Of a DNA stretch of 64,000 bases, positions 20,102 through 33,134 are shown piece after piece. Source of the stretch: Candidatus Tepidifontimicrobium thermophilum. Its GTDB lineage: Bacteria > Sysuimicrobiota > Sysuimicrobiia > Sysuimicrobiales > Sysuimicrobiaceae. The first letter of the stretch is position 1. Each line of letters opens with the position of its first letter. The notes under the pieces were generated by a model. It saw only the letters and a list, made by a program, of their open reading frames with translations, had not been told where the DNA came from and searched no databases. Made by a program: the position numbers and the translations under genes. The stretch spans positions 1 through 64,000 of the forward strand of contig JAVKKH010000011.1 of NCBI GenBank assembly GCA_031296405.1, in the 5' to 3' direction.

Positions 20102-21220
20102 TCAAAGCATGCTACCAGGGGCCAGGCGCGCCCGCACCGCGCGGGCGAACTCCGCGGTGGTGGCGGACCCACCCAGGTCGGGGGTCCGGACACCTGCGGA
20201 AAGCGCCGCGCCCACGGCTTCCTCCAAGCGGCGGGCGGCCTCGGTGGCCGCGGGGTCGTCGAACCGCCGGCCGAGCCACTCGAACAGCATCGCCACGGAC
20301 AGGATCTCCGCAGTAGGGTTGGCGACCCCGCTCCCCGCGATGTCGGGGGCCGATCCGTGGACCGCCTGGGCCATGGCGTGCTCGTCGCCGGAGTTCAGGG
20401 AGGGTGCCACGCCAAGACTTCCCACCAGCCCCGCCGCCTGGTCGCTCAGGATGTCGCCGAACAGGTTGGTGGTGACCAGCACGTCGTACCGCTGCGGGTC
20501 CCGCACGAGGAAGTACGCGGCCGCGTCTGCATGCACATCGTCGAGGGCCACGTCGGGGTACCGGGACGCCACGGCCCGGCAGCAAGCCAGGAACAGCCCG
20601 TCGCCCCGCCGCAGGACGTTGGCCTTGTGGACCGCGGTCACCCGGCCGGGGCGGGCGCGGAGGCGTGCGCGGCGGCGGGCTAGCTGGAAAGCGTACTCTG
20701 CGATCCGCTCACACGCGCGCCGGGTGACCACGCGGAGGCTGATCACCACGTCAGGGGTCACCAGGACCTCGGCATCGCCCTCCAGCACGTTGCGGTCGGC
20801 GTAGAAGCCCTCGGTGTTCTCCCGCACCACCACCAGGTCCACAGCCTCGTACCGGCTGGGGACCGCCGGGAGGTTGCGGGCTGGCCGCTCGTTGGCGTAA
20901 AGGTCAAAGAGCCTCCGCAGCGTCCCGCTGGGGTTGCGCATGCCTGAAAGCCGGGGGTCGTAACGGTGGTGCTCGACAGGCCCCAGTACCCACCCGTGGC
21001 AGCCGTGGAGGGCCTCCACGGTCTGCTGGGGGAGGGTGTCGCCCAGCTGCCCGTACGCCTCCAGCCCCACGGGCAGCTCCACCCATTCCACGGAGAGGCC
21101 TGCCGCGCGCGCGGACAGGTCCGCTAGGTCCACCGCCACGGGGACCACCTCGGGCCCGATGCCGTCGCCCTTCAGGACACCGAGCCGGTAGGCAGCCTGA
21201 CGTGGCCCGCTGGAGCTCAT
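20102..21220 (-). CDS. isocitrate/isopropylmalate dehydrogenase family protein (tartrate dehydrogenase-like beta-decarboxylating enzyme)
   Basis: 372 residues of the beta-decarboxylating dehydrogenase fold: LKGDGIGPEVV at the start, the substrate-arginine region (MRNPSGTLRRLFDLYANERP), VVRENTEGFYADR, KANVLRRGDGLF, the metal Asp set in DDVHADAAAYFLV ... LSDQAAGLVG, and the NAD-binding HGSAPDIAGSGVANPTAEILS. NAD is more likely than NADP from the loop. The family covers isopropylmalate, isocitrate, homoisocitrate and tartrate; the Ser-Gly-rich substrate segment is not diagnostic. It overlaps the Ldh2 gene by ATGA and belongs to the GntR-led carboxylate operon, so it probably oxidises a hydroxy-di/tricarboxylate. 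Confidence 0.87.
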   Translation of the reverse strand: MSSSGPRQAAYRLGVLKGDGIGPEVVPVAVDLADLSARAAGLSVEWVELPVGLEAYGQLGDTLPQQTVEALHGCHGWVLGPVEHHRYDPRLSGMRNPSGTLRRLFDLYANERPARNLPAVPSRYEAVDLVVVRENTEGFYADRNVLEGDAEVLVTPDVVISLRVVTRRACERIAEYAFQLARRRARLRARPGRVTAVHKANVLRRGDGLFLACCRAVASRYPDVALDDVHADAAAYFLVRDPQRYDVLVTTNLFGDILSDQAAGLVGSLGVAPSLNSGDEHAMAQAVHGSAPDIAGSGVANPTAEILSVAMLFEWLGRRFDDPAATEAARRLEEAVGAALSAGVRTPDLGGSATTAEFARAVRARLAPGSML

Positions 21221-22257
21221 CCCTCCTCCCGCGGCCCCGGAAGGCCCAGAAGGGCCGCGACCCGCCGGACCTGTGCTACGACCTCCTCCGGCAGCTCCAC
21301 CGCGTCCGTCTGCTCGGCGGTACAGCGCGCCTCCCGCTCGCCCGGCAACAGGACCTCCGTGTAGCCTGGAGCCAGGGCCGTGCCCTTCACCATGTGCACC
21401 AGCCGCTCCACGTCCGTGAAGAATTCAGAAGGTCCCCGGAGGTGCCGTACGTCCACCGCGAAAAAGGCGTGGCTGGCGCCGTACCGGCTCCCCCGAAGGG
21501 GCGAGACGTCCCGGCCGAAGCTGCCCCCGCACAGCACGCCTGTGAGCACGTCCACCACCAGGGCCATCCCGTACCCCTTGTAGCCCCCCACGGGGAGGAG
21601 CGTACCGGCCAGGGCCTGTTGCGGGTCGTCCGTGGGGTGGCCGTGCGGGTCCAGGGCCCATCCGGCAGGCAGCCGCTCGCGGCGCTCCGCGGCCAGGCGG
21701 ACACGGCCTTGGGCCGCCACCGAGAGGGCCATGTCCAGGACGATGGGGGGCCCGTCCCTGCGCGGGACGGCCACCGCCACGGGGTTGTTGCCGAGGGTCC
21801 GCTCCCGTCCGCCCCACGGGGCCAGGCTGGGCGCGGCGTTGGCCATGGCCACACCCACCAGACCTTCTCGGGCCGCGATCTCCGCGTAGTAGCCCGCCCG
21901 TCCGAAGTGGCCTCCGCTGCGCACCCACACGCCCGCGAGGCCGCTGCGGCGTGCCTTCTCCACGCACCTGGTCATCCCGTCCACCGCGGCCACCGGACCC
22001 GGGCAGCCCTCCGCGTCCAGCAGGAGGAAGGCGGCACCTTCCCGGACCAGCCGGGGCCGCACCCCGGATCGCCAGATACCGCTGCGTACGAGCTCCGCGT
22101 ACGCGCCCACCCGGACGACGCCGTGGGAGTGCACCCCGGCCCGGTCCGCGCTGACGAGGACGTCGGAGATCAGCCGCGCGTCTTCGGCGTCGAGGCCTGC
22201 GGCTTCGAACAAGCGAGCCACCCAGCCGCGCAGCTCTCCCGCCGGGTACCGGGGCAC
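21217..22257 (-). CDS. Ldh2/MDH2-family NAD(P)-dependent 2-hydroxyacid dehydrogenase
   Basis: 346 residues of the type-2 malate/L-lactate dehydrogenase family (not the Rossmann LDH): catalytic SHGVVRV near the N-terminus, SGGHFGRAGYYA, GNNPVAVAVPR, VLDMALSVAAQGR, and GYKGYGMALVVDVLTGVL. Members oxidise malate, sulfolactate, ureidoglycolate or related hydroxyacids. The GTG start is 2 bases after the GntR stop (TAGCCGTG) with GGAG about 10 bases upstream, so it is translationally linked with the regulator. Its stop overlaps the start of the next dehydrogenase. Confidence 0.88.
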   Translation of the reverse strand: MPRYPAGELRGWVARLFEAAGLDAEDARLISDVLVSADRAGVHSHGVVRVGAYAELVRSGIWRSGVRPRLVREGAAFLLLDAEGCPGPVAAVDGMTRCVEKARRSGLAGVWVRSGGHFGRAGYYAEIAAREGLVGVAMANAAPSLAPWGGRERTLGNNPVAVAVPRRDGPPIVLDMALSVAAQGRVRLAAERRERLPAGWALDPHGHPTDDPQQALAGTLLPVGGYKGYGMALVVDVLTGVLCGGSFGRDVSPLRGSRYGASHAFFAVDVRHLRGPSEFFTDVERLVHMVKGTALAPGYTEVLLPGEREARCTAEQTDAVELPEEVVAQVRRVAALLGLPGPREEG

Positions 22258-22259
22258 GG

Positions 22260-22976
22260 CTACGGCTCCGGATGGCCGACCCCGGGCATCGGGACGCCGG
22301 GCTGCGCGAGGGTACAGCCGGCGGCGATGCGCATCCGGACCATCTGCGCCCTCGCCATGTGCTGGCGTGCCAGCTGTTCCGCGCGGTCCGCGTCGCCCAC
22401 GCGGATGGCGTCCAGCAGGGCCCGGTGTTCGGCCAGGGCCTCGCGGGCGCGGCCCGGGTAGCTCAGGGTGGTGACGGGCTGGCGGGCGATGAGCAGCCAG
22501 ATCCGCTGCAGCTCCCGGGCCAGGCAGCGGTTGCGGGCGGCGCGCCAGATCACCGCGTGGAATTCCGCGTTCAGCCGCGCCAGGGCGTGCAGGTCGTCCT
22601 GTTGAAGGGCGCGCTCCATGTCCTCGCACAGCTCTTCGAGGAAGTACACCTCGCTGGTGGTGATCCCGCGGGCCGCCAGCCGCGCCGCGAGACCCTCCAG
22701 GGTCTCCCGTACCACGCACAGGTCCAGCAGTTCCTCCTGGGTGGGCTCCGCCACCGCGAGCCCCCGGCGACGGCCGCGCTCCAGGTAGCCTTCCGCCCGG
22801 AGGCGCTGCAGGGCTTCCCGTACGGGCGTGCGGCTGCACCGGAGCTGGCGCGCCAGCTGCTCCTCCCGCAGGGGGTCTCCCGGCCGCAGGCGGCCGCTGC
22901 GGATGGCGGCCACCACCCACTGGTACACCGCCTGGGAGGCGGCCACCTGCCTTCGGCCGGAGGTCCTGTTGGGCAT
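22260..22976 (-). CDS. GntR-family transcriptional regulator, FCD (FadR) subfamily
   Basis: 238 residues. N-terminal winged helix-turn-helix: QAVYQWVVAAIRSGRLRPGDPLREEQLARQL with recognition helix SRTPVREALQRL; C-terminal all-helical FCD ligand domain with the metal-coordinating pattern D/H ... LNAEFHAVIW ... EHRALLDAI. FCD regulators usually sense carboxylic acids. It probably controls the divergent isomerase/transporter operon and itself. The -10 box lies so close that the transcript would begin within a few bases of the ATG, i.e. nearly leaderless. It heads the operon with the two dehydrogenases. Confidence 0.93.
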   Translation of the reverse strand: MPNRTSGRRQVAASQAVYQWVVAAIRSGRLRPGDPLREEQLARQLRCSRTPVREALQRLRAEGYLERGRRRGLAVAEPTQEELLDLCVVRETLEGLAARLAARGITTSEVYFLEELCEDMERALQQDDLHALARLNAEFHAVIWRAARNRCLARELQRIWLLIARQPVTTLSYPGRAREALAEHRALLDAIRVGDADRAEQLARQHMARAQMVRMRIAAGCTLAQPGVPMPGVGHPEP

Positions 22977-22983
22977 CGTCCAA

Positions 22984-23012
22984 ATTGTATGCAAATGAAC
23001 ACAAGTTGACAA
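22984..23012 (-). promoter_or_regulatory. promoter of the gntR operon
   Basis: Minus strand: TTGTCA (23007-23012), 17-base spacer, TACAAT (22984-22989). The predicted start point near 22977 is next to the ATG at 22976, implying a leaderless mRNA. The -35 box overlaps that of the opposing promoter. Confidence 0.6.
22985..22994. promoter_or_regulatory. candidate GntR (FCD) operator, TTGTATGCAA
   Basis: An imperfect palindrome, TTG-TATG-CAA, one base away from TTGTATACAA, a form often bound by FCD-type GntR regulators. It overlaps the -10 box of the gntR promoter, which would give autorepression. A related half-site, GGTATGC, recurs at 23027-23033 over the opposing -10 box. Binding is inferred. 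Confidence 0.45.
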
Positions 23013-23034
23013 GCGTTTGGAACAATGGTATGCG
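23006..23034 (+). promoter_or_regulatory. promoter of the isomerase / tricarboxylate transporter operon
   Basis: Plus strand: consensus -35 TTGACA (23006-23011), 17-base spacer, TATGCG (23029-23034). The -35 shares five bases with the -35 of the divergent gntR promoter, so polymerase could occupy only one at a time. The stretch 22980-23035 is AT-richer than all its surroundings. Confidence 0.55.
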
Positions 23035-23102
23035 TGATCGCGAGGCCTCAGGCGCAGGATCCGGGAAGGCTCCGTGGAACTGCTGCGGAGGTGGGCAGAG
23101 CC

Positions 23103-24266
23103 TTGGGAAACCAGCGCAGGATCCGGGCGGTGCTCATGCGGGGCGGGACCAGCCGCGGGGTTTTCTTCCTGCGGCCGGACCTGCCGGAAGACCCCGAACT
23201 GCGGGACCGCGTGATCCTCAAGGTGTTCGGCGGAGGTGACCCCTACGGCCGGCAGGTGGACGGCCTGGGGGGCGCGGTGTCCACCACCAGCAAGGTGGTG
23301 ATCGTGGGCCCGCCTTCTGTGCCCGAAGCAGACGTGGAGTTCACCTTCGGACAGGTGAGCGTCACCGAACCCCTGGTGGACTACGGAGGGACGTGCGGCA
23401 ACCTGACCGCGGCGGTGGGGCCCTTCGCCATGGAGGAGGGGCTGGTGCGGGGTACAGACCCCATCACCACCGTGCGGATCTGGCAGACCAACACGCGTAA
23501 GCGCATCCACGCCCACGTCCCCACCCGCAACCACCTGCCCGAGGTGGAAGGGGACTACGCCATCGACGGGGTGCCGGGAACCGGAGCCCGCATCGCGCTG
23601 GACTTCCTGGACCCCGCGGGGTCGGTTACGGGGCGGCTGCTGCCCACCGGGAAGGCCGCAGAGCTCCTGCACGTGCCCGGGGTCGGCAGCGTCACCGTCT
23701 CCCTGGTGGACGCGGTGAACCCGGTGGTGTTCGTCCGGCCGCAGGACGTGGGTCTGCGGGGTACGGAAGGCCCGGAGGAGGTGGACGGCAACTCGGACCT
23801 GCTGCAGCGGCTGGAACGGGTCCGGGCGCACGCGGCGGTTCACATGGGCATCGCCGCCACTCCTGAGGAGGCCACCCGGCGCAGCCCGGGGATCCCCAAG
23901 CTGGCCTTCGTCTGCCCTCCCGCACCGTACCGCTCCACCCGCGGGACGGTGGTGGAGGCGGGAGAGGTAGACCTGGTGGGCAGGATCCTGTCCATGGGCA
24001 GGCTGCACCGGGCGTTCGCGTTGAGTGGGGCGGCGTGCACCGCGGTGGCCGCCCAAGTGGAGGGGACCGTGGTGCACGAGGCCGTGCGGGCAGGTCTGCA
24101 GGACGGCCGCGTGCGGATCGGCCACCCTGCGGGGGTGCTGGAGGCGGCTGCCTCGGTGGGCTACCGGGGCGGCCAGTGGGTGGTGGACAAGGTCACCACG
24201 TACCGGACCGCGCGCCGGCTGATGGAGGGGTACGCCCTCGTGCCCTGGTCCGTGTGGCCGGCGTAG
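23103..24266 (+). CDS. PrpF-family isomerase (2-methylaconitate / 4-oxalomesaconate / aconitate-type cis-trans isomerase)
   Basis: About 387 residues. PrpF proteins have two diaminopimelate-epimerase-like halves and move a double bond in tricarboxylic acids such as methylaconitate or oxalomesaconate. Hallmarks: MRGGTSRGVFF near the start (catalytic-site Lys position is Arg here), GGAVSTTSKVVIV, the active-site loop DYGGTCGNLTAAVGPFA, and the repeat-half GPEEVDGNSDLLQRLE. The TTG at 23103 gives an N-terminus of usual length (11 residues before MRGG); GTG 23091 and ATG 23025 are other options. First gene of the plus-strand carboxylate operon. Confidence 0.85.
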   Translation: MGNQRRIRAVLMRGGTSRGVFFLRPDLPEDPELRDRVILKVFGGGDPYGRQVDGLGGAVSTTSKVVIVGPPSVPEADVEFTFGQVSVTEPLVDYGGTCGNLTAAVGPFAMEEGLVRGTDPITTVRIWQTNTRKRIHAHVPTRNHLPEVEGDYAIDGVPGTGARIALDFLDPAGSVTGRLLPTGKAAELLHVPGVGSVTVSLVDAVNPVVFVRPQDVGLRGTEGPEEVDGNSDLLQRLERVRAHAAVHMGIAATPEEATRRSPGIPKLAFVCPPAPYRSTRGTVVEAGEVDLVGRILSMGRLHRAFALSGAACTAVAAQVEGTVVHEAVRAGLQDGRVRIGHPAGVLEAAASVGYRGGQWVVDKVTTYRTARRLMEGYALVPWSVWPA

Positions 24267-24285
24267 CCCGAAAGGGGGTGCTGGC

Positions 24286-25362
24286 ATGACGAGCAGGCTC
24301 CTGTGGGTCGTGGTGTTGGTGGCGGCGCTCGGTGCTCTGCCCGCGTCCGGGCAGCAGCCGTACTACGCGGGCAAGACCATCGAGATCATCGTGCCGTTCG
24401 CCCCGGGCGGGGGTAGCGATATCGACGCCCGGTTCTTCGCCCCCTTCCTGGAGAAGTACGTGCCGGGCAACCCGCGGGTAGTTGTCCGCAACATGCCGGG
24501 GGGAGGTAGCATCCTCGGCGCCAACTTCTTCGCGGAGAACGCGCGCCCGGACGGGACGCAGCTGCTCACGACCTCCGGGTCCACCATGATCCCGTACATC
24601 CTGGGGGTCCCGCAGGTCCGCTACGACCCCACGAAGTGGGAGCTCATCAAGGTAAACGGGGTCGGTGGGGTGCTGTACGTGTCCCCGCGCACGGGCGTCC
24701 GGAAGCCCGAAGATCTGGTGCGGCCCGCAGAGCGGCTGGTGTACGGCGGCATCAGCGCCACCGGGTTGGACCTGGTGACGTTGTTGCTGTTTGAAGTCCT
24801 GGGGCTGGACGTGCGGGTGGTGATGGGGTTCGAAGGCCGGGGCCCCGCGCGGCTGGCGTTCGAGCGCGGGGAGACCAACATCGACTACCAGACCACGCCC
24901 GCCTACCTGTCCCAGGTGGTGCCGCTCGTCCGGGAGGGGAAGGCCATCCCGATCCTGTCCATGGGGTTCGTGAACGAGAAAGGGGTGATGGTGCGGGACC
25001 CCAGCGCCCCGGACCTGCCCAGCGCGTACGAGGCCTACCAGGCCATCTTCAAGCGCAAGCCGGACGGCCTGCTGCGGTGGAAGGCGTACCAGAGCATGGT
25101 GGCCGCGGCCTTCACTTTCCAGAAGGCCCTGTGGGCGCCGGGCGGGACTCCGCCGGAGGCCCTGCAGGCCCTGCGGACCGCGGTGGATCGGATGAAGGCG
25201 GACCCGCAGTTCCGGCAGCAGGGCAGGCAGGTGCTGGAGGGCTACGAGGTGCTGCGCGGCGACGTGGCCAAGTCTGCGGTCCTGCGGGCCGCGCGGGTGA
25301 CCCTGGACGTGAAGAAGTACATCACGGACCTACTGCGGAGCAAGTACCAGGTGCGGCTGTAA
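24286..25362 (+). CDS. tctC: tripartite tricarboxylate transporter substrate-binding protein (TctC/Bug family)
   Basis: 358 residues with an N-terminal signal peptide (LLWVVVLVAALGALPASGQ). The Bug-family start YYAGKTIEIIVPFAPGGGSDIDAR and the loop NMPGGGSILGANF form the carboxylate pincer that binds the ligand outside the membrane. The protein hands substrate to the TctAB permease encoded next. ATG follows AAGGGGGTG. The residue after the first pincer, Ser-Asp-Ile-Asp, is not diagnostic for one ligand; the neighbouring isomerase suggests a tricarboxylate. Confidence 0.9.
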   Translation: MTSRLLWVVVLVAALGALPASGQQPYYAGKTIEIIVPFAPGGGSDIDARFFAPFLEKYVPGNPRVVVRNMPGGGSILGANFFAENARPDGTQLLTTSGSTMIPYILGVPQVRYDPTKWELIKVNGVGGVLYVSPRTGVRKPEDLVRPAERLVYGGISATGLDLVTLLLFEVLGLDVRVVMGFEGRGPARLAFERGETNIDYQTTPAYLSQVVPLVREGKAIPILSMGFVNEKGVMVRDPSAPDLPSAYEAYQAIFKRKPDGLLRWKAYQSMVAAAFTFQKALWAPGGTPPEALQALRTAVDRMKADPQFRQQGRQVLEGYEVLRGDVAKSAVLRAARVTLDVKKYITDLLRSKYQVRL

Positions 25363-25376
25363 ACCTTCAAGGGGCT

Positions 25377-25421
25377 CCCCCACGGGGCCCGTGACGGGCC
25401 CGAGGGGGGTTGCCTTTTTTT
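25377..25421 (+). terminator. intrinsic terminator/attenuator between tctC and tctAB
   Basis: A strong GC hairpin (arms CCCCC at 25377-25381 and GGGGGG at 25404-25409 with an inner GGGCCCG/CGGGCCC pair) is followed by TTTTTTT at 25415-25421. Only 11 bases separate it from the next ATG, so partial read-through would give more binding protein than permease. Confidence 0.75.
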
Positions 25422-25432
25422 AGGCGGAGGCG

Positions 25433-27385
25433 ATGGCGGAGGCGCTGAGCGCGGCAGCGGGGCTGTTCCTGAGCCCCACGCGGCTTGGGATGCTGGTCCT
25501 GGGCAGCGGCGTGGGCCTGTTGATCGGCATCCTCCCGGGCATGGGCGGCATCGTGGCCGCGGCCATTTTGCTGCCCTTCATGCTGAAGCTGGAACCCGCG
25601 GCGGCCCTAGCCATGGTGACGGGCGCCCTGGCGGTGGTCCACACCTCCGACACCATCACGTCGGTGCTGATCGGTGCACCGGGCTCGGCGGCCGCGGTCC
25701 CCACGATGATGGAGGGGCACCCCATGGCCCGCCGCGGGGAGGCGGCACGGGCGCTGGCGGCGGCCTACCTGTCCAGTCTGGTGGGCGGGATCATCGGGGC
25801 CTTGGGTCTGACGGTGTCCATCCCCCTCGCGCGGCCGCTGGTGCTCTCCTTCGGGTCCCCGGAGCTGTTCATGCTGACCGTGCTGGGCGTTTCCTTCGCG
25901 GGCAGTCTGCTGGGCCGGGAGCCGCTGAAGGGACTCAGCGCGGGCCTGCTGGGTCTGCTGCTGGGCACCGTGGGTCCCGCGCCCGCGGCCGCGGAGGTCC
26001 GCTTCGCCTTCGGTCAGGTCTACCTCACCGACGGGATCGACCTGGCCCTGGTGGCCCTGGGCCTGTTCGGGGTGGCGGAGGTGGTGTCCCTGCTGGCCCG
26101 GGGTGGCGCTGTGGCGCAGCGGATGGAGCTGGGCCGTGGCTGGTGGCAGGGCGTGCTGGACGTCTGGCAGCACAGGTGGCTGGTGATCCGGGGGGCGCTG
26201 ATCGGCATGTGGGCCGGGGTGCTGCCCGCCATCGGGGCCACCGCAGGTACCCTGATGGCCTACGGCCACGCGGTGGCCACCAGCCGCGACCGGTCGCGGT
26301 TCGGCAAGGGCGACGTGCGGGGCATCATCGCGCCGGAGGCCGCCAACAACGCGGTGGAGGCCGGGGACCTGGTGCCAACCCTCCTGTTCGGCGTGCCGGG
26401 TGGGGCACCCTCAGCCATGATCCTGGGCGCCCTGCTGGCGTACGGGATTCTGCCAGGACCCCGGATCGTCACCCAGCACCTGGACCTCATCTACACCGTG
26501 GTATGGTCGTTCGCGCTGGCCAACGTGCTGGGGGCCGGCGTGATGTTCGCCACAAGCCCGCTGCTGGCGCGCCTCACGTACGTGCCCTTCAACCGGATCG
26601 CCCCGCCCATCGTCCTGGCCATGGTGCTCGCGGCCTTCCAGGAGACGCAACACTTCGGGGATTTGGTGTCCCTGGTGGCCCTCGGGGTGGCGGGCTACGC
26701 CCTGAAGGTCACGGGCTGGCCCCGGGGCCCCCTTCTCATCGGGTTCGTCCTCAGCAACCCCCTGGAACGCTACTACTTCCTCACCGTGAACCTCTACCCG
26801 CGGCCGGAGGACTGGCTGTTGCGGCCCGGGGTCGTGGTGATCGGCCTGCTGGTGGTGGCCCCGTTCGTGTGGAGCGCCTTCCGGTGGCTGCGCGAGGGGA
26901 CCCGCACCCGGCGGGAGACACCCCGCCAGCCGGCCGGGGCGTCGGCGGTGGCGACCGCGGTGGTGCTGGGCGTCTTCGGGTACGCCTGGTGGACCGCGCG
27001 GGGCTTCTTGCCGGATGCCGCCCTCATGCCGGTGTCCGTGGCTGCCGCGGGTACGGTCCTGACGGCGGTGCAGCTAGCGCGGGAGCTGCGGGGCCAAGGC
27101 AGTCCCGTGACGGACGAGGACGAGGTGGAGGCAGAGCCGGGTGCAGTGCGTGAGCGCGTGCGCCGGGCGGTCGCGTACCTCGTGAGCCTGGCGCTCTACG
27201 TGGCCGCCACGTGGTTTCTGGGCTTGCGGTGGGCGTCCGTGCTGTGGAGCCTGTGGGTTCTGGTGGGCGTGGCCCGGGTCCGCTGGCCGACAGCGGTCGC
27301 CTACGCGGCGCTGATGGTGGTGGGCCTGGACCTGCTGGCGTCCCTGCTGGGTGTGCACCTGCCCGAGGGGCGGCTCCGTCTGTAG
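25433..27385 (+). CDS. tripartite tricarboxylate transporter permease, fused TctA-TctB
   Basis: 650 residues. Positions 1 to about 490 are TctA: many membrane helices, the first conserved glycine motif GILPGMGG and the second, GVLPAIGATAGTLMAYGHA, plus PEAANNAVEAG and the FGVPGGAPSAMILGALL block. From about 505 a second module with four helices (ATAVVLGVFGYAWW, LMPVSVAAAGTVLTAVQ, YLVSLALYVAATWFLG, WVLVGVARVRWPTAVAYAALMV) is typical of TctB, the small subunit normally made separately. The fusion gives fixed 1:1 subunits. Start ATG with GGCGGAGGCG just before. Confidence 0.88.
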   Translation: MAEALSAAAGLFLSPTRLGMLVLGSGVGLLIGILPGMGGIVAAAILLPFMLKLEPAAALAMVTGALAVVHTSDTITSVLIGAPGSAAAVPTMMEGHPMARRGEAARALAAAYLSSLVGGIIGALGLTVSIPLARPLVLSFGSPELFMLTVLGVSFAGSLLGREPLKGLSAGLLGLLLGTVGPAPAAAEVRFAFGQVYLTDGIDLALVALGLFGVAEVVSLLARGGAVAQRMELGRGWWQGVLDVWQHRWLVIRGALIGMWAGVLPAIGATAGTLMAYGHAVATSRDRSRFGKGDVRGIIAPEAANNAVEAGDLVPTLLFGVPGGAPSAMILGALLAYGILPGPRIVTQHLDLIYTVVWSFALANVLGAGVMFATSPLLARLTYVPFNRIAPPIVLAMVLAAFQETQHFGDLVSLVALGVAGYALKVTGWPRGPLLIGFVLSNPLERYYFLTVNLYPRPEDWLLRPGVVVIGLLVVAPFVWSAFRWLREGTRTRRETPRQPAGASAVATAVVLGVFGYAWWTARGFLPDAALMPVSVAAAGTVLTAVQLARELRGQGSPVTDEDEVEAEPGAVRERVRRAVAYLVSLALYVAATWFLGLRWASVLWSLWVLVGVARVRWPTAVAYAALMVVGLDLLASLLGVHLPEGRLRL

Positions 27386-27419
27386 GCCCGGGCTCTCCCA
27401 CACACGGTCGGAGGGAACC

Positions 27420-29168
<1,749 letters not shown>

Positions 29169-29179
29169 GGAGGTGCGGC

Positions 29180-29509
29180 GTGTTCGTGGTGATGAACCGG
29201 ATCCCGGTGAGCCCGGAGTTCCAGGAAGCGTTCGAGGAACGCTTCCGCTCGCGGGCCCGGGAAGTGGACCGCATGCCGGGCTTCGTCCGGAACTGGGTGT
29301 TACGCCCCGTGGACCCGGAGGATCCTTACGTGGTCGTCACGGTGTGGCAGACCCGGGAGGCTTTCGAGGCGTGGACCCGCTCGGAGGCGTTCCAGCGGGG
29401 GCACGCGCGGTCCGGCAACCTCCCCCGCGAGGCCTTCCGCGGGCCCTCGAAACTGGAGCGTTACGAGTTGATCCTGGACTCCGCCGCGGAGGGCGACACC
29501 GGGGCCTGA
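29180..29509 (+). CDS. IsdG/HmoB-like antibiotic-biosynthesis-monooxygenase (ABM) domain protein
   Basis: 109 residues: FVVMNRIPVSPEFQEAFEERFRSR, VDRMPGFVRNWVLRP, YVVVTVWQTREAFEAWTRSEAF, and HARSG. This is the ABM fold of heme-degrading IsdG/HmoB proteins. The His in GHARSG sits where IsdG-type enzymes place the heme-ligand His, and the Asn/Trp positions also fit. GTG lies 3 bases after GAGGAGGTGCG. Last gene of the carboxylate operon (11 bases after the flavoprotein); a role in heme breakdown is family-based, and its link to carboxylate use is unclear. Confidence 0.8.
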   Translation: MFVVMNRIPVSPEFQEAFEERFRSRAREVDRMPGFVRNWVLRPVDPEDPYVVVTVWQTREAFEAWTRSEAFQRGHARSGNLPREAFRGPSKLERYELILDSAAEGDTGA

Positions 29510-29828: not shown

Positions 29829-30983
29829 GTGGGCGAGCCGGTGATCGTGGACGCAGTCCGCACGCCCATCGGCAAGCGGGGCGGGCTTCTGCGGGGCGTA
29901 CGGCCAGAGGTGCTCTACGCCACGGTGCTGGACGCCCTGGTGCAGCGCAACGGGATCCCGCCGGAGTGGGTGGACGACGTGATCACGGGCTGCGTGACCC
30001 AGGCCGGGGAGCAGGGCATGAACGTGGGGCGGCTGGCGGTCCTGTGTTCCTCCCTGGGCCACCGGGTCCCTGCGGTCACCCTGAGCCGCATGTGCGGGAG
30101 CAGCCAGCAGGCGGTGCACTTCGCCGCGCAGGCGATCGCCGCGGGCGACGCCCGGTTGGTGATCGCGGGTGGGGTGGAGTCCATGACGCGGGTCCCCATG
30201 TTCCTGGACATCGGGGACCTGAGGAATCTCAGCCCCGCGGCCCAGGAGAGGTACGAGCTGGTGCACCAGGGCGAGTCCGCGGAGCGCATCGCGGACCGGT
30301 ACGGGCTTTCCCGTCGGGAGCTGGACGAGTTCAGCTACACCAGCCACGTGCGGGCCGCGCGGGCCACCCAGGAGGGGCGGTTCCGCCAGCATCTGGTCCC
30401 CGTGGAAGGGCAGGATTCCGAGGGGCGGCCTGTGCGGGTGGAGCACGACGAAGGGATCCGGTTCGAGCCGTCCCTGGAGCGCATGCTGCAGCTCCCCCCG
30501 GTGTTCCGGCCGGACGGGCGGGTGACCGCGGGGAACAGCTCCCAGATCTCGGACGGCGCGGCCGCGGTCCTGGTGGCGGACCGGGAGTTCGCGCGGGCCC
30601 ATGGCCTCCGGGTACGGGCGCGGTTCCGGGCGCGGGTGGTGGTGGCCGGTGACCCGACCCTGCAGCTGATGGAGGTGGTGCCCGCCACCCGGGCGGCGCT
30701 GCAGCGCGCCGGCCTGAGCCTGAAGGACGTGGACGTGGTGGAGATCAACGAGGCGTTCGCCAGCGTGGTGTTGGGCTGGGCCCGGGAGCTGGAACCGGAC
30801 CTGGAGCGGGTGAACCCTAACGGCGGAGCCATCGCGCACGGCCACCCCCTGGGGGCCACGGGGGCGGTGCTCATGGCCAAGCTGGTGGACGAGCTGGACC
30901 GCCGCGAAGGGCAGTTCGGGCTGCAGGTGATGTGCATCGGCCACGGGATGGCCACGGCCACCGTGCTGGAGCGGGTGAGCTGA
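29829..30983 (+). CDS. thiolase (acetyl-CoA acetyltransferase / 3-ketoacyl-CoA thiolase)
   Basis: 384 residues. Thiolytic enzyme with nucleophilic Cys in LSRMCGSSQQAVHFAAQAI, GGVESMTRVPM, NEAFA, GGAIAHGHPLGATGA and the second catalytic Cys in VMCIGHGMA. The last motif normally reads C-x-G-G-G; here it is C-I-G-H-G, an unusual His that could tune the active site. GTG follows GGGAGGTGCG. The downstream ADP-forming acyl-CoA synthetase suggests the enzyme cleaves a 3-ketoacyl-CoA and feeds the resulting acyl-CoA into ATP production. Confidence 0.93.
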   Translation: MGEPVIVDAVRTPIGKRGGLLRGVRPEVLYATVLDALVQRNGIPPEWVDDVITGCVTQAGEQGMNVGRLAVLCSSLGHRVPAVTLSRMCGSSQQAVHFAAQAIAAGDARLVIAGGVESMTRVPMFLDIGDLRNLSPAAQERYELVHQGESAERIADRYGLSRRELDEFSYTSHVRAARATQEGRFRQHLVPVEGQDSEGRPVRVEHDEGIRFEPSLERMLQLPPVFRPDGRVTAGNSSQISDGAAAVLVADREFARAHGLRVRARFRARVVVAGDPTLQLMEVVPATRAALQRAGLSLKDVDVVEINEAFASVVLGWARELEPDLERVNPNGGAIAHGHPLGATGAVLMAKLVDELDRREGQFGLQVMCIGHGMATATVLERVS

Positions 30984-30990
30984 CCGCCTG

Positions 30991-32430
30991 ATGGCGCACG
31001 CGCACGGCCCAGCACCCCAGGGGCTGGATGCTTTCTTCGCGCCGCGGGGCGTGGCGGTGGTGGGAGCCTCCGCGGAGCCCGGGGGACCCGGCCACCAGAT
31101 CGTGGCGCAGCTGCAGCGGACCCACTACCCGGGCGGGATTTACCCCGTGAACCCGCGCGCCACCGAGGTGCTGGGGCTGCCTTGTTACCCCAGCGTGCTT
31201 CAAGTACCCGGCCCGGTAGACCTGGCGGTGGTGGTGGTCCCCGCAGCCGCGTGCCTCGTGGTGGCCGCCCAGCTGGCCGCCCGCAGGCACCAACGGGGCG
31301 ACGCCGCCGCGGCGGTGGTGGTCTCGGGGGGCTTCGCGGAGGTCGGGGATGCGGGGCGGCAGCTACAGGACCAGCTGGTCCGCACGCTCCGCACCGCGGG
31401 CATCCGGCTGGTGGGGCCCAACTGCGTGGGGGTCGCGGACGCTCACGTGGGGCTCACCACCAGCTTCGACCTGGGTCCGTACCCTGCAGGAGGGGCTTCC
31501 CTGCTCAGCCAGAGCGGGGCCTTCGCCATGTCCTTCCTCCAGTGGGCGCGGCCGTTGGAGATGGTGGGCCTGTGCAAGCTGGCCTCCGTGGGCAACATGG
31601 CGGACGTCACCCTCACCGAGCTGCTGGCGTACCTCGCCGACGACCGGTGCACGCGGGTGGTGGGCGTCTACCTGGAGGGGGTGGCGGACGCGCGCGCCTT
31701 CGTGCAGACCGCTGCCCGGGTCGGCCGGGACAAGCCCGTGGTGGTGCTCAAGCCGGGGCGCACCGAGCAGGGGGCGCGCGCAGCCCACAGCCACACGGCC
31801 TCCGTGGCCAGCGCGGACGCCATCTACGACGGGGCGTTCCGGCAGGCGGGGGTGGTGCGGGCGCGGACGGTGTCGGAGTTCTACGGCGCCGTGCGGGCCT
31901 TCGAGCGGCTGCCCCTGCCCCCTGGCAACCGGGTGGCGGTCCTGAGTGCGGTGGGCGGGCCGGGCACCATCTGCGTGGACGAGGTGGCCGCTCAGCCCGG
32001 CCTGCAGCTCGCCCACTTCTCGCCGCGGACGCGGGAGAGACTGGGAGCGGTGCTGTCGAACCTGGCCGCGGTGGGACAGCCGGAAGGATACGTGGACATG
32101 ACCGGCGCGGTGGTGGCGCACACGCACGGGGACGCGCTGCGGATCCTCCTGGAGGACGAGGGCGTGGACGCAGTGGTCCTCCTGACGCCTCCCCCGGCGT
32201 TTTTGGACGAGGAAGAGGTGGCTCGGTCCGTCTTCCAGGCGTACCGGGACCAGCCCGAGGGCCGGCGGAAGCCCGTCCTCGCGGTGATCACCTTCGGGGA
32301 CGCGGCCCTGGCGGCGCGCCGGATTTTGGAGAAGGGAGGTCTGTGCACCTTCGAGTTCCCTGAGGAGGCGGTGCGGGTGCTGGCCCGGATGGTGGAGTAC
32401 GCGCGCGCCCGGGAGCGGCTGCGGTCGTGA
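30991..32430 (+). CDS. ADP-forming acyl-CoA (acetyl-CoA) synthetase, alpha subunit
   Basis: 479 residues. Domains: CoA-binding Rossmann fold (FFAPRGVAVVGAS...YPVNPRATEVLG), then two ligase-CoA-like domains. The phospho-accepting histidine lies in AHSHTASVAS (about His268), corresponding to the phosphohistidine of archaeal ACD. Together with the ATP-grasp beta subunit it makes ATP from acyl-CoA, ADP and phosphate. The stop overlaps the start of the beta-subunit gene by 4 bases (GTGA). A fused form is common in bacteria; here the subunits are separate, as in archaea. Confidence 0.9.
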   Translation: MAHAHGPAPQGLDAFFAPRGVAVVGASAEPGGPGHQIVAQLQRTHYPGGIYPVNPRATEVLGLPCYPSVLQVPGPVDLAVVVVPAAACLVVAAQLAARRHQRGDAAAAVVVSGGFAEVGDAGRQLQDQLVRTLRTAGIRLVGPNCVGVADAHVGLTTSFDLGPYPAGGASLLSQSGAFAMSFLQWARPLEMVGLCKLASVGNMADVTLTELLAYLADDRCTRVVGVYLEGVADARAFVQTAARVGRDKPVVVLKPGRTEQGARAAHSHTASVASADAIYDGAFRQAGVVRARTVSEFYGAVRAFERLPLPPGNRVAVLSAVGGPGTICVDEVAAQPGLQLAHFSPRTRERLGAVLSNLAAVGQPEGYVDMTGAVVAHTHGDALRILLEDEGVDAVVLLTPPPAFLDEEEVARSVFQAYRDQPEGRRKPVLAVITFGDAALAARRILEKGGLCTFEFPEEAVRVLARMVEYARARERLRS

Positions 32431-33134
32431 GCCACCCGGTGGTGGATCGGGCGCTGCGGGAGGGGCGAGACGCCCTGCGGGAGTGGGAGGCGTACGAGCT
32501 GTGCGATGCGTACGGGATCCCGCACCCCCGCTGGGAGCTGGCCAACACCGAGGAGGAGGCCGTAGCGGCGTCCCTGAGGTTGGGTAACCCCGTGGTGCTG
32601 AAGGTGTCCAGCCTGGACGTGCTGCACAAGTCGGACGTCGGGGGGGTGCTGGTGGGCCTGCGGGGCGAGCAGGAGGTCCGGGACGGCTTCCGCCGGCTGC
32701 GGGAGGAGGTGGCGCGGCGGGCTGCGCACGCGCGGTGGGAGGGCGTGCTGGTCCAGCCCTTGGTCGCCGGCACCGCGGAGGTGGTGGTGGGAGGGCTTCG
32801 GGATCCCCAGTTCGGCCCCGTGGTGGTGGTGGGCTCGGGCGGCGTGCTGGTGGAGGTCCTGCGGGACGTGGCGTTCCGCCTGGCTCCCCTGGACCGGGCG
32901 GAGGCGTTGCGTCAGATCCAGCAGACCGCGTGCTACCGGCTGCTGCAGGGGGCACGGGGCCGGCCGCCCGCGGACCTCGAGGCGGTAGCGGACGTCCTGG
33001 TTCGGGCCGGACAGCTCCTTCTGTCCGAACCCCACGTGCGAGAGCTGGACCTCAACCCCGTGGTGGCAGGGCCTGAGGGCTGCTGGGCGGTGGACGCGCG
33101 GGTGCTCCTGGACCCCTCCGGCTACACGTCGTAG
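32427..33134 (+). CDS. ADP-forming acyl-CoA synthetase, beta subunit (ATP-grasp)
   Basis: 235 residues, an ATP-grasp_5 domain: [23 protein letters not shown] binds [36 protein letters not shown] contains the metal and phosphate-shuttle residues, and RELDLNPVV ends the active site. It phosphorylates ADP using the phosphohistidine of the alpha subunit. GTG start inside the alpha-subunit stop. Its 3' end overlaps glnA on the other strand by 13 bases. Confidence 0.9.

What the first reader, a model, noticed from the sequence alone, without database searches (positions are those of the whole stretch)
20102..29509. Divergent locus likely to take up and degrade an unusual tricarboxylic acid
GntR-FCD, Ldh2-type and isocitrate/isopropylmalate-type dehydrogenases face a PrpF-type isomerase, TctC, a fused TctAB, an SdhA-type flavoprotein and an IsdG-like protein. 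Each family handles hydroxy- or unsaturated carboxylates. The combination does not match the known citrate, tricarballylate (tcu) or methylcitrate (prp) sets, which lack this pairing of enzymes. A pathway for trans-aconitate, a methylated or a hydroxylated tricarboxylate is possible.
Basis: partly seen in the sequence, partly recalled or inferred. Interest (0 to 1): 0.65.

Follow-up and report, generated by a model that had tools for sequence, protein, structure and literature searches.

The report
Aconitate-type acid uptake and oxidation locus
These eight genes most likely let an uncultured bacterium import and burn a three-acid compound such as tricarballylate or trans-aconitate; most of the set is already known from tricarballylate (tcu) clusters elsewhere, but here the usual first enzyme is missing and a modified succinate-dehydrogenase-like protein sits in the operon and may replace it.

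Summary
The genes are all there, in tight divergent operons, and the locus is conserved in the genus. In annotated Rhodobacterales, Thalassospira and Shinella replicons, the closest relatives of this TctC sit with a fused TctAB, a PrpF-family isomerase, GntR, the same unusual dehydrogenase subfamily (NPSG motif), often Ldh2, and TcuA/TcuB. In three other genera of the window's order, TcuA lies directly upstream of PrpF-TctC-TctAB. The window's genus and family lack TcuA. Its locus instead carries an SdhA paralogue with no SdhB gene beside it; the normal sdhCDAB is elsewhere. This paralogue keeps the succinate-dehydrogenase catalytic residues, but the active-site Phe (E. coli SdhA F119) is Ala in all eight orthologues. 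Aspartate oxidase has its active-site Glu121 there, and the flavoprotein of PrpF-IDH-aconitase operons in sulfate reducers also has Ala. Best reading: a tcu-like tricarboxylate uptake and oxidation locus in which an altered SdhA may stand in for TcuAB. The substrate (tricarballylate, trans-aconitate or a relative) and the SdhA role are inferred, not shown. New variant of a known kind, moderate interest.

The parts
20102..21220 (-). IDH/isopropylmalate-family decarboxylating dehydrogenase of an NPSG subfamily, not a classical isocitrate dehydrogenase
   Evidence: PF00180 290.8 bits; every NCBIfam equivalog under cut-off; NPSG motif and tree
21217..22263 (-). Ldh2-type 2-hydroxyacid dehydrogenase
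   Evidence: PF02615 354.6 bits; 35-39% identical to Ldh2 of tcu-linked and Priestia clusters
22260..22976 (-). GntR/FCD regulator
   Evidence: PF00392 and PF07729
22977..23102 (.). divergent promoter region; sigma-70-like site on the minus strand at 23012-22984
   Evidence: 1 site found, 0.3 expected in shuffles; a consensus match only
23103..24266 (+). PrpF-family isomerase (the ORF opens at 23025; the TTG at 23103 is the likelier start)
   Evidence: PF04303 417.2 bits; Lys90 and Cys124 match SoPrpF K73 and C107; TIGR02334 and OMA tautomerase both under cut-off
24286..25362 (+). TctC solute-binding protein of a sharply bounded clade
   Evidence: 36.8 bits to PF03401 but 36-49% identical to one clade of 55 plasmid records, then a drop below 30%
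25433..27385 (+). fused TctA-TctB permease
   Evidence: PF01970 378.7 and PF07331 26.9 bits; about 39-40% identical to fused permeases of tcu-linked clusters
27420..29168 (+). orphan SdhA-type flavoprotein with Ala121 in place of the active-site Phe
   Evidence: TIGR01816 775.5 bits; sdhCDAB lies elsewhere; residue analysis
29180..29509 (+). ABM/IsdG-like small protein
   Evidence: PF03992 82.4 bits; N6, W65, H75

Best explanation
The locus takes up and oxidises a tricarboxylate of the tricarballylate/aconitate type. TctC binds it outside the membrane and the fused TctAB imports it. A flavin dehydrogenase introduces the double bond (tricarballylate to aconitate). PrpF moves or flips the double bond to give the form that the housekeeping aconitase accepts. 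A decarboxylating 2-hydroxyacid dehydrogenase (IDH-like) yields a 2-oxo acid, and Ldh2 acts on a related 2-hydroxy acid. GntR/FCD senses the acid. In most relatives the flavin step belongs to TcuA with TcuB. Here the operon instead holds an SdhA paralogue whose active site has lost its conserved Phe, and the proposal is that it replaces TcuAB. Shown: gene content, conservation, link of the transport/isomerase unit to TcuA clusters, absence of TcuA, and the Phe-to-Ala change. Inferred: the substrate, the order of steps, the SdhA role, its electron acceptor, and the roles of Ldh2 and the ABM protein.
For: PrpF-TctC-TctAB orthologues (66-72% identity) follow TcuA directly in G007, G015 and G005 of the same order, G005's TcuA being frameshifted. 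The same TctC clade sits with fused TctAB, a PrpF-family gene, the NPSG IDH and TcuA/TcuB in many alphaproteobacterial replicons, several with Ldh2. TcuA is absent from the window's genus and family. PrpF catalytic Lys and Cys are kept, and PrpF-family TarA/TbrA are aconitate isomerases (PMC11495376). A housekeeping aconitase is present. The SdhA paralogue has Ala where canonical SdhA has Phe and NadB has its active-site Glu121. An Ala-type SdhA follows a PrpF gene in G012, another family. Sulfate reducers carry PrpF-IDH-flavoprotein-aconitase operons whose flavoprotein also has Ala there.
Against: The Ala-type SdhA is free-standing in G002, G005 and G007, and G005 and G007 also keep TcuA. All catalytic residues for succinate are kept, so succinate itself may be its substrate. 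No SdhB or TcuB partner in the locus. Several TctC-clade loci have no TcuA nearby. No SdhA was found beside this TctC clade outside the genus. The Ala in the sulfate-reducer flavoprotein is in a distant type without the FAD-linked His.
Confidence: 0.45

Rival explanations
1. trans-Aconitate route only: TctC-TctAB imports trans-aconitate, PrpF makes cis-aconitate, and housekeeping aconitase and dehydrogenases finish. The SdhA paralogue merely oxidises succinate and has no special substrate.
For: TarA, a PrpF-family protein, does exactly this in Bacillus velezensis (PMC11495376); no TcuA in the genome; aconitase present.
Against: Relatives keep a flavin dehydrogenase beside the transporter; it does not explain the operonic SdhA, its Phe-to-Ala change or the two dehydrogenases.
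Confidence: 0.22
2. A methylated, hydroxylated or oxo tricarboxylate, or a branched dicarboxylate such as methylitaconate, is the substrate; the NPSG dehydrogenase and Ldh2 act on its hydroxy acids.
For: The dehydrogenase motif is not that of isocitrate dehydrogenase. The best solved relative of PrpF is 3-methylitaconate isomerase. Related clusters contain RraA or 2-hydroxyacid dehydrogenase genes.
Against: No lyase, hydratase or aldolase in the window locus; the TctC clade is tied to TcuA, whose known substrate is tricarballylate.
Confidence: 0.2
3. The SdhA paralogue is an alternative flavoprotein of complex II that uses SdhBCD from the other locus, and only happens to share the operon.
For: 63% identity to the canonical SdhA and all catalytic residues kept; free-standing copies in G002, G005 and G007.
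Against: Conserved Phe lost in every copy; operonic position kept across the genus; adjacent to PrpF in G012.
Confidence: 0.1
4. Citrate or ferric citrate uptake, with the IsdG-like protein serving iron supply.
For: TTT systems are known for citrate (general knowledge); IsdG-like triad in the operon.
Against: Citrate use needs neither PrpF nor a second flavin dehydrogenase; no other iron gene in the locus.
Confidence: 0.05

Closest known systems
tcuAB clusters with a TTT transporter in Rhodobacterales, Thalassospira and Shinella (e.g. Roseivivax marinus NZ_CP090153, Pacificitalea NZ_CP021407, Paracoccus alcaliphilus NZ_CP067127)
   Same: TctC clade, fused TctAB, a PrpF-family isomerase, GntR, NPSG-type IDH and, in several, Ldh2
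   Different: They carry TcuA and TcuB; their PrpF-family gene is the more distant '4-oxalomesaconate tautomerase' type (39% to the window PrpF); no SdhA or ABM
TcuA-PrpF-TctC-TctAB units of the same order (G007, G015, G005)
   Same: Orthologous PrpF, TctC and TctAB at 66-72% identity
   Different: TcuA upstream (G005: frameshifted), with a PrpB-like lyase in G015 and G005; no IDH, Ldh2, SdhA or ABM beside them
Salmonella tcuABC
   Same: Proposed chemistry: tricarballylate to aconitate (TcuA, as cited)
   Different: TcuA absent, no TcuB in the locus, TTT transporter in place of TcuC
Bacillus velezensis tar system
   Same: A PrpF-family aconitate isomerase next to an importer and a regulator (PMC11495376)
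   Different: Single-gene importer TarB; no TTT, SdhA or IDH
PrpF-IDH-flavoprotein-aconitase operons of Desulfovirgula, Desulfotruncus and (partial) Desulfofundulus
   Same: PrpF with an IDH and an SdhA/FrdA-type flavoprotein; Ala at the F119 position in the two seen whole
   Different: TRAP transporter, own FeS and Hdr-like partners, dedicated aconitase, classical isocitrate motif, no FAD-linked His

Membership tests
tcu (tricarballylate utilisation) | TcuA flavoprotein | tested here: not met
   Best match in G000 28.7 bits against a cut-off of 369
tcu (tricarballylate utilisation) | TcuB 4Fe-4S protein in the locus | tested here: not met
   None of the eight proteins matches it; rest of the genome not searched for TcuB
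tcu (tricarballylate utilisation) | activity on tricarballylate | not testable with these tools
   needs enzyme and binding assays
tcu-linked TTT/PrpF/IDH module | TctC clade, fused TctAB, PrpF family and NPSG IDH together | tested here: met
prp / methylcitrate (AcnD-PrpF) | PrpF equivalog score and AcnD partner | tested here: not met
   TIGR02334 370 against 440.55; no AcnD in the locus; PrpB/PrpD pairs lie elsewhere
4-oxalomesaconate tautomerase | equivalog score | tested here: not met
   NF033377 315.2 against 440
PrpF-family aconitate isomerase | catalytic Lys and Cys | tested here: met
   K90 and C124 align with SoPrpF K73 and C107
PrpF-family aconitate isomerase | aconitate isomerisation | not testable with these tools
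   needs assay
Succinate dehydrogenase SdhA | family score, FAD-linked His and catalytic residues | tested here: met
Succinate dehydrogenase SdhA | SdhB gene next to it and active-site Phe | tested here: not met
   No SdhB gene in the locus; Ala121
Isocitrate dehydrogenase | S-x-N substrate motif and equivalog scores | tested here: not met
   NPSG motif; all equivalogs under cut-off
IsdG-type haem-degrading monooxygenase | N-W-H triad | tested here: met
   N6, W65, H75 (the triad and its spacing in IsdG are recalled, not re-derived); HmuQ score 73 is under its cut-off of 130

The most novel reading that the evidence does not exclude
An SdhA-family flavoprotein, changed at one active-site position (Phe to Ala) and without an iron-sulfur subunit gene of its own beside it, has become the dehydrogenase of a tricarboxylate pathway and replaced TcuAB: a complex II subunit recruited for tricarballylate oxidation.
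Probability: 0.3. Interest if true: 0.62.

Novelty: new variant of a known kind. Interest (0 to 1): 0.42.

Why it matters
TTT binding proteins and PrpF-family enzymes are abundant but mostly without assigned ligands. This locus and its relatives tie one clearly bounded TctC clade, one IDH subfamily and one PrpF group to tricarballylate-type metabolism, and give a single-residue, testable hypothesis for how a succinate dehydrogenase subunit could accept a bulkier acid.

Tried and rejected
A methylcitrate-pathway role for PrpF: rejected, because the score is under the equivalog cut-off, there is no AcnD or PrpC in the locus, and PrpB/PrpD pairs lie elsewhere. A gallate/4-oxalomesaconate role: score under cut-off and no aldolase or hydratase in the locus. 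The SdhA as L-aspartate oxidase: rejected, because the FAD-linked His is present, NadB models are under cut-off, and the residue is Ala rather than Glu121. The SdhA as the genome's only succinate dehydrogenase: rejected, since sdhCDAB is on C34. Nesting of the window IDH inside the tcu-linked IDHs: not supported, it is a separate branch of the same subfamily. Literature searches found no description of this combined gene set in the open library. Alignment A2 contains a junk tenth row added by mistake and is not used.

Full report
What is there. The window lies in a 2.44 Mb, about 71% GC genome in 38 contigs of a small phylum with 43 held species; the closest public record is titled 'Armatimonadetes bacterium isolate SKYB51'. 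By recollection this is probably the GTDB phylum Sysuimicrobiota/CSP1-3; that was not tested. Eight genes fill 20102-29509: IDH-like, Ldh2 and GntR/FCD on the minus strand, each overlapping the next by 4 bp, and PrpF, TctC, fused TctAB, SdhA and ABM on the plus strand with gaps of 11-70 bp. Profile matches are strong for all except TctC (36.8 bits) and the TctB-like end (26.9). The same order recurs in G040, and on partial contigs in G039 and G038.

Wider neighbourhoods. Among the phylum's genomes, the orthologous unit PrpF-TctC-TctAB (66-72% identity) recurs in G007, G005, G015, G004 and, truncated, G006. In G007 and G015 a TcuA gene over its curated cut-off lies directly upstream of PrpF; in G005 the TcuA is frameshifted. 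G015 and G005 also have a PrpB-like lyase. TcuA is missing from the window's genus and family.

Outside the phylum, TctC is the best marker. In the plasmid collection its hits fall into one clade of 55 records at 36-49% identity, then drop below 30%. In the regions read, the fused TctAB lies next to it in all but one (a second Gemmatimonadota copy) and a PrpF-family gene in most; Sagittula stellata and one Roseicyclus copy have none. TcuA lies within about 20 kb in Roseivivax, Pacificitalea, Paracoccus marcusii, P. alcaliphilus, P. liaowanqingii, Shinella, Thalassospira, Pseudosulfitobacter, Gemmobacter and Pseudorhodobacter. It is also there in Roseicyclus, Tropicimonas, a Gemmatimonadota MAG and Salinicoccus. 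It was not seen in the stretches read of Sagittula stellata, Sagittula P11, Palleronia, Rhizobium rosettiformans, Sinorhizobium sojae or Tateyamaria. Many of the TcuA-bearing clusters also carry the IDH-family dehydrogenase, and several carry Ldh2.

The two dehydrogenases. The IDH-like protein has N-P-S-G where isocitrate dehydrogenases have S-x-N, and every NCBIfam equivalog is under cut-off. In a tree it falls with the tcu-linked dehydrogenases in a clade with 100/97 support, apart from the isocitrate dehydrogenases, but forms its own branch there. So it shares a subfamily with them and probably a related substrate, without proof of the same one. Ldh2 is 35-39% identical to those of the tcu-linked and Priestia clusters; its closest solved relatives are malate/lactate and sulfolactate dehydrogenases.

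The isomerase. PrpF keeps the Lys and Cys found important in SoPrpF (K90, C124) and is nearest, among solved structures, to 3-methylitaconate isomerase and then PrpF. PrpF-family TarA and TbrA are aconitate isomerases (PMC11495376). The genome has a housekeeping aconitase and PrpB/PrpD pairs elsewhere, so PrpF is not needed for a methylcitrate pathway by the prpD route; a methylcitrate synthase was not looked for.

The SdhA paralogue. It scores as a true SdhA, but the genome's sdhCDAB is on C34 and no SdhB gene is nearby. An alignment with E. coli SdhA shows the FAD-linked His and the substrate and proton-transfer residues all kept. At E. coli SdhA F119 all eight orthologues have Ala with a one-residue insertion, while every canonical SdhA aligned there, including representatives of groups only 38-46% identical, has Phe. 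FrdA F116, which I take as the equivalent, lies in an active-site loop and was paired by an engineered disulfide with G392, two residues from the substrate Arg390 (PMC5773532). In E. [quoted passage not shown] coli L-aspartate oxidase' (title seen as a reference). The position thus differs between enzymes with different substrates. A smaller side chain could admit the extra carboxymethyl arm of tricarballylate; that step is inference.

Independent parallels. In G012, of another family, a PrpF gene is followed at once by the same Ala-type SdhA. Desulfovirgula and Desulfotruncus have TRAP-PrpF-IDH-FeS protein-flavoprotein-aconitase-Hdr operons, and part of the same operon is seen in Desulfofundulus at a contig end. 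Here IDH has the true isocitrate motif and the flavoprotein also has Ala. Together these genes spell out tricarballylate or aconitate to 2-oxoglutarate (gene names read from sequence by eye for the FeS and Hdr parts). Against the replacement idea, the Ala-type SdhA is free-standing in G002, G005 and G007, and G005 and G007 also keep TcuA.

Verdict. The locus is a tcu-like tricarboxylate locus with lineage-specific changes. Tricarballylate or aconitate is the best-supported substrate class. The role of the SdhA paralogue is the interesting and testable part; the ABM protein, with the IsdG triad, remains unexplained.

Noticed in passing
L227 (G000:C1:172000-188000): A second carboxylate cluster: GntR, TAXI-type TRAP, PrpB-like lyase, MmgE/PrpD, IDH-family dehydrogenase, GntR, TctC, TctB and TctA (read from translations).
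   Followed up: partly
L045 (G000:C1:390000-401665): A second PrpF (50% identical) lies near 2-oxoacid:ferredoxin oxidoreductase-like, CoA-transferase-like, enoyl-CoA hydratase-like and thiolase-like genes; a PrpF beside a thiolase-like gene recurs in eight other loci of the phylum.
   Followed up: partly
L060, L062, L066: Sulfate reducers carry TRAP-PrpF-IDH-FeS protein-flavoprotein-aconitase-Hdr-like operons that read as a complete aconitate or tricarballylate oxidation route (L066 is cut at the contig end).
   Followed up: partly
window 29829-33134: Thiolase and split ADP-forming acyl-CoA synthetase subunits follow the locus and keep that place in G040 (thiolase only seen in G039 and G038, at contig ends); their link to the pathway is unknown.
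   Followed up: partly
L194, L195, L196: Free-standing Ala121-type SdhA genes without an SdhB gene in three genera; function unknown.
   Followed up: partly
L041 (G028:C13:1-14000): A 68% identical PrpF lies among carboxymuconate cycloisomerase, MmgE/PrpD and muconate-cycloisomerase family genes, suggesting a different use of the same isomerase.
   Followed up: no
L236-L243 and similar: Many TctC-clade loci have a response regulator and sensor kinase pair divergent from TctC, a likely TctDE-type sensor.
   Followed up: no
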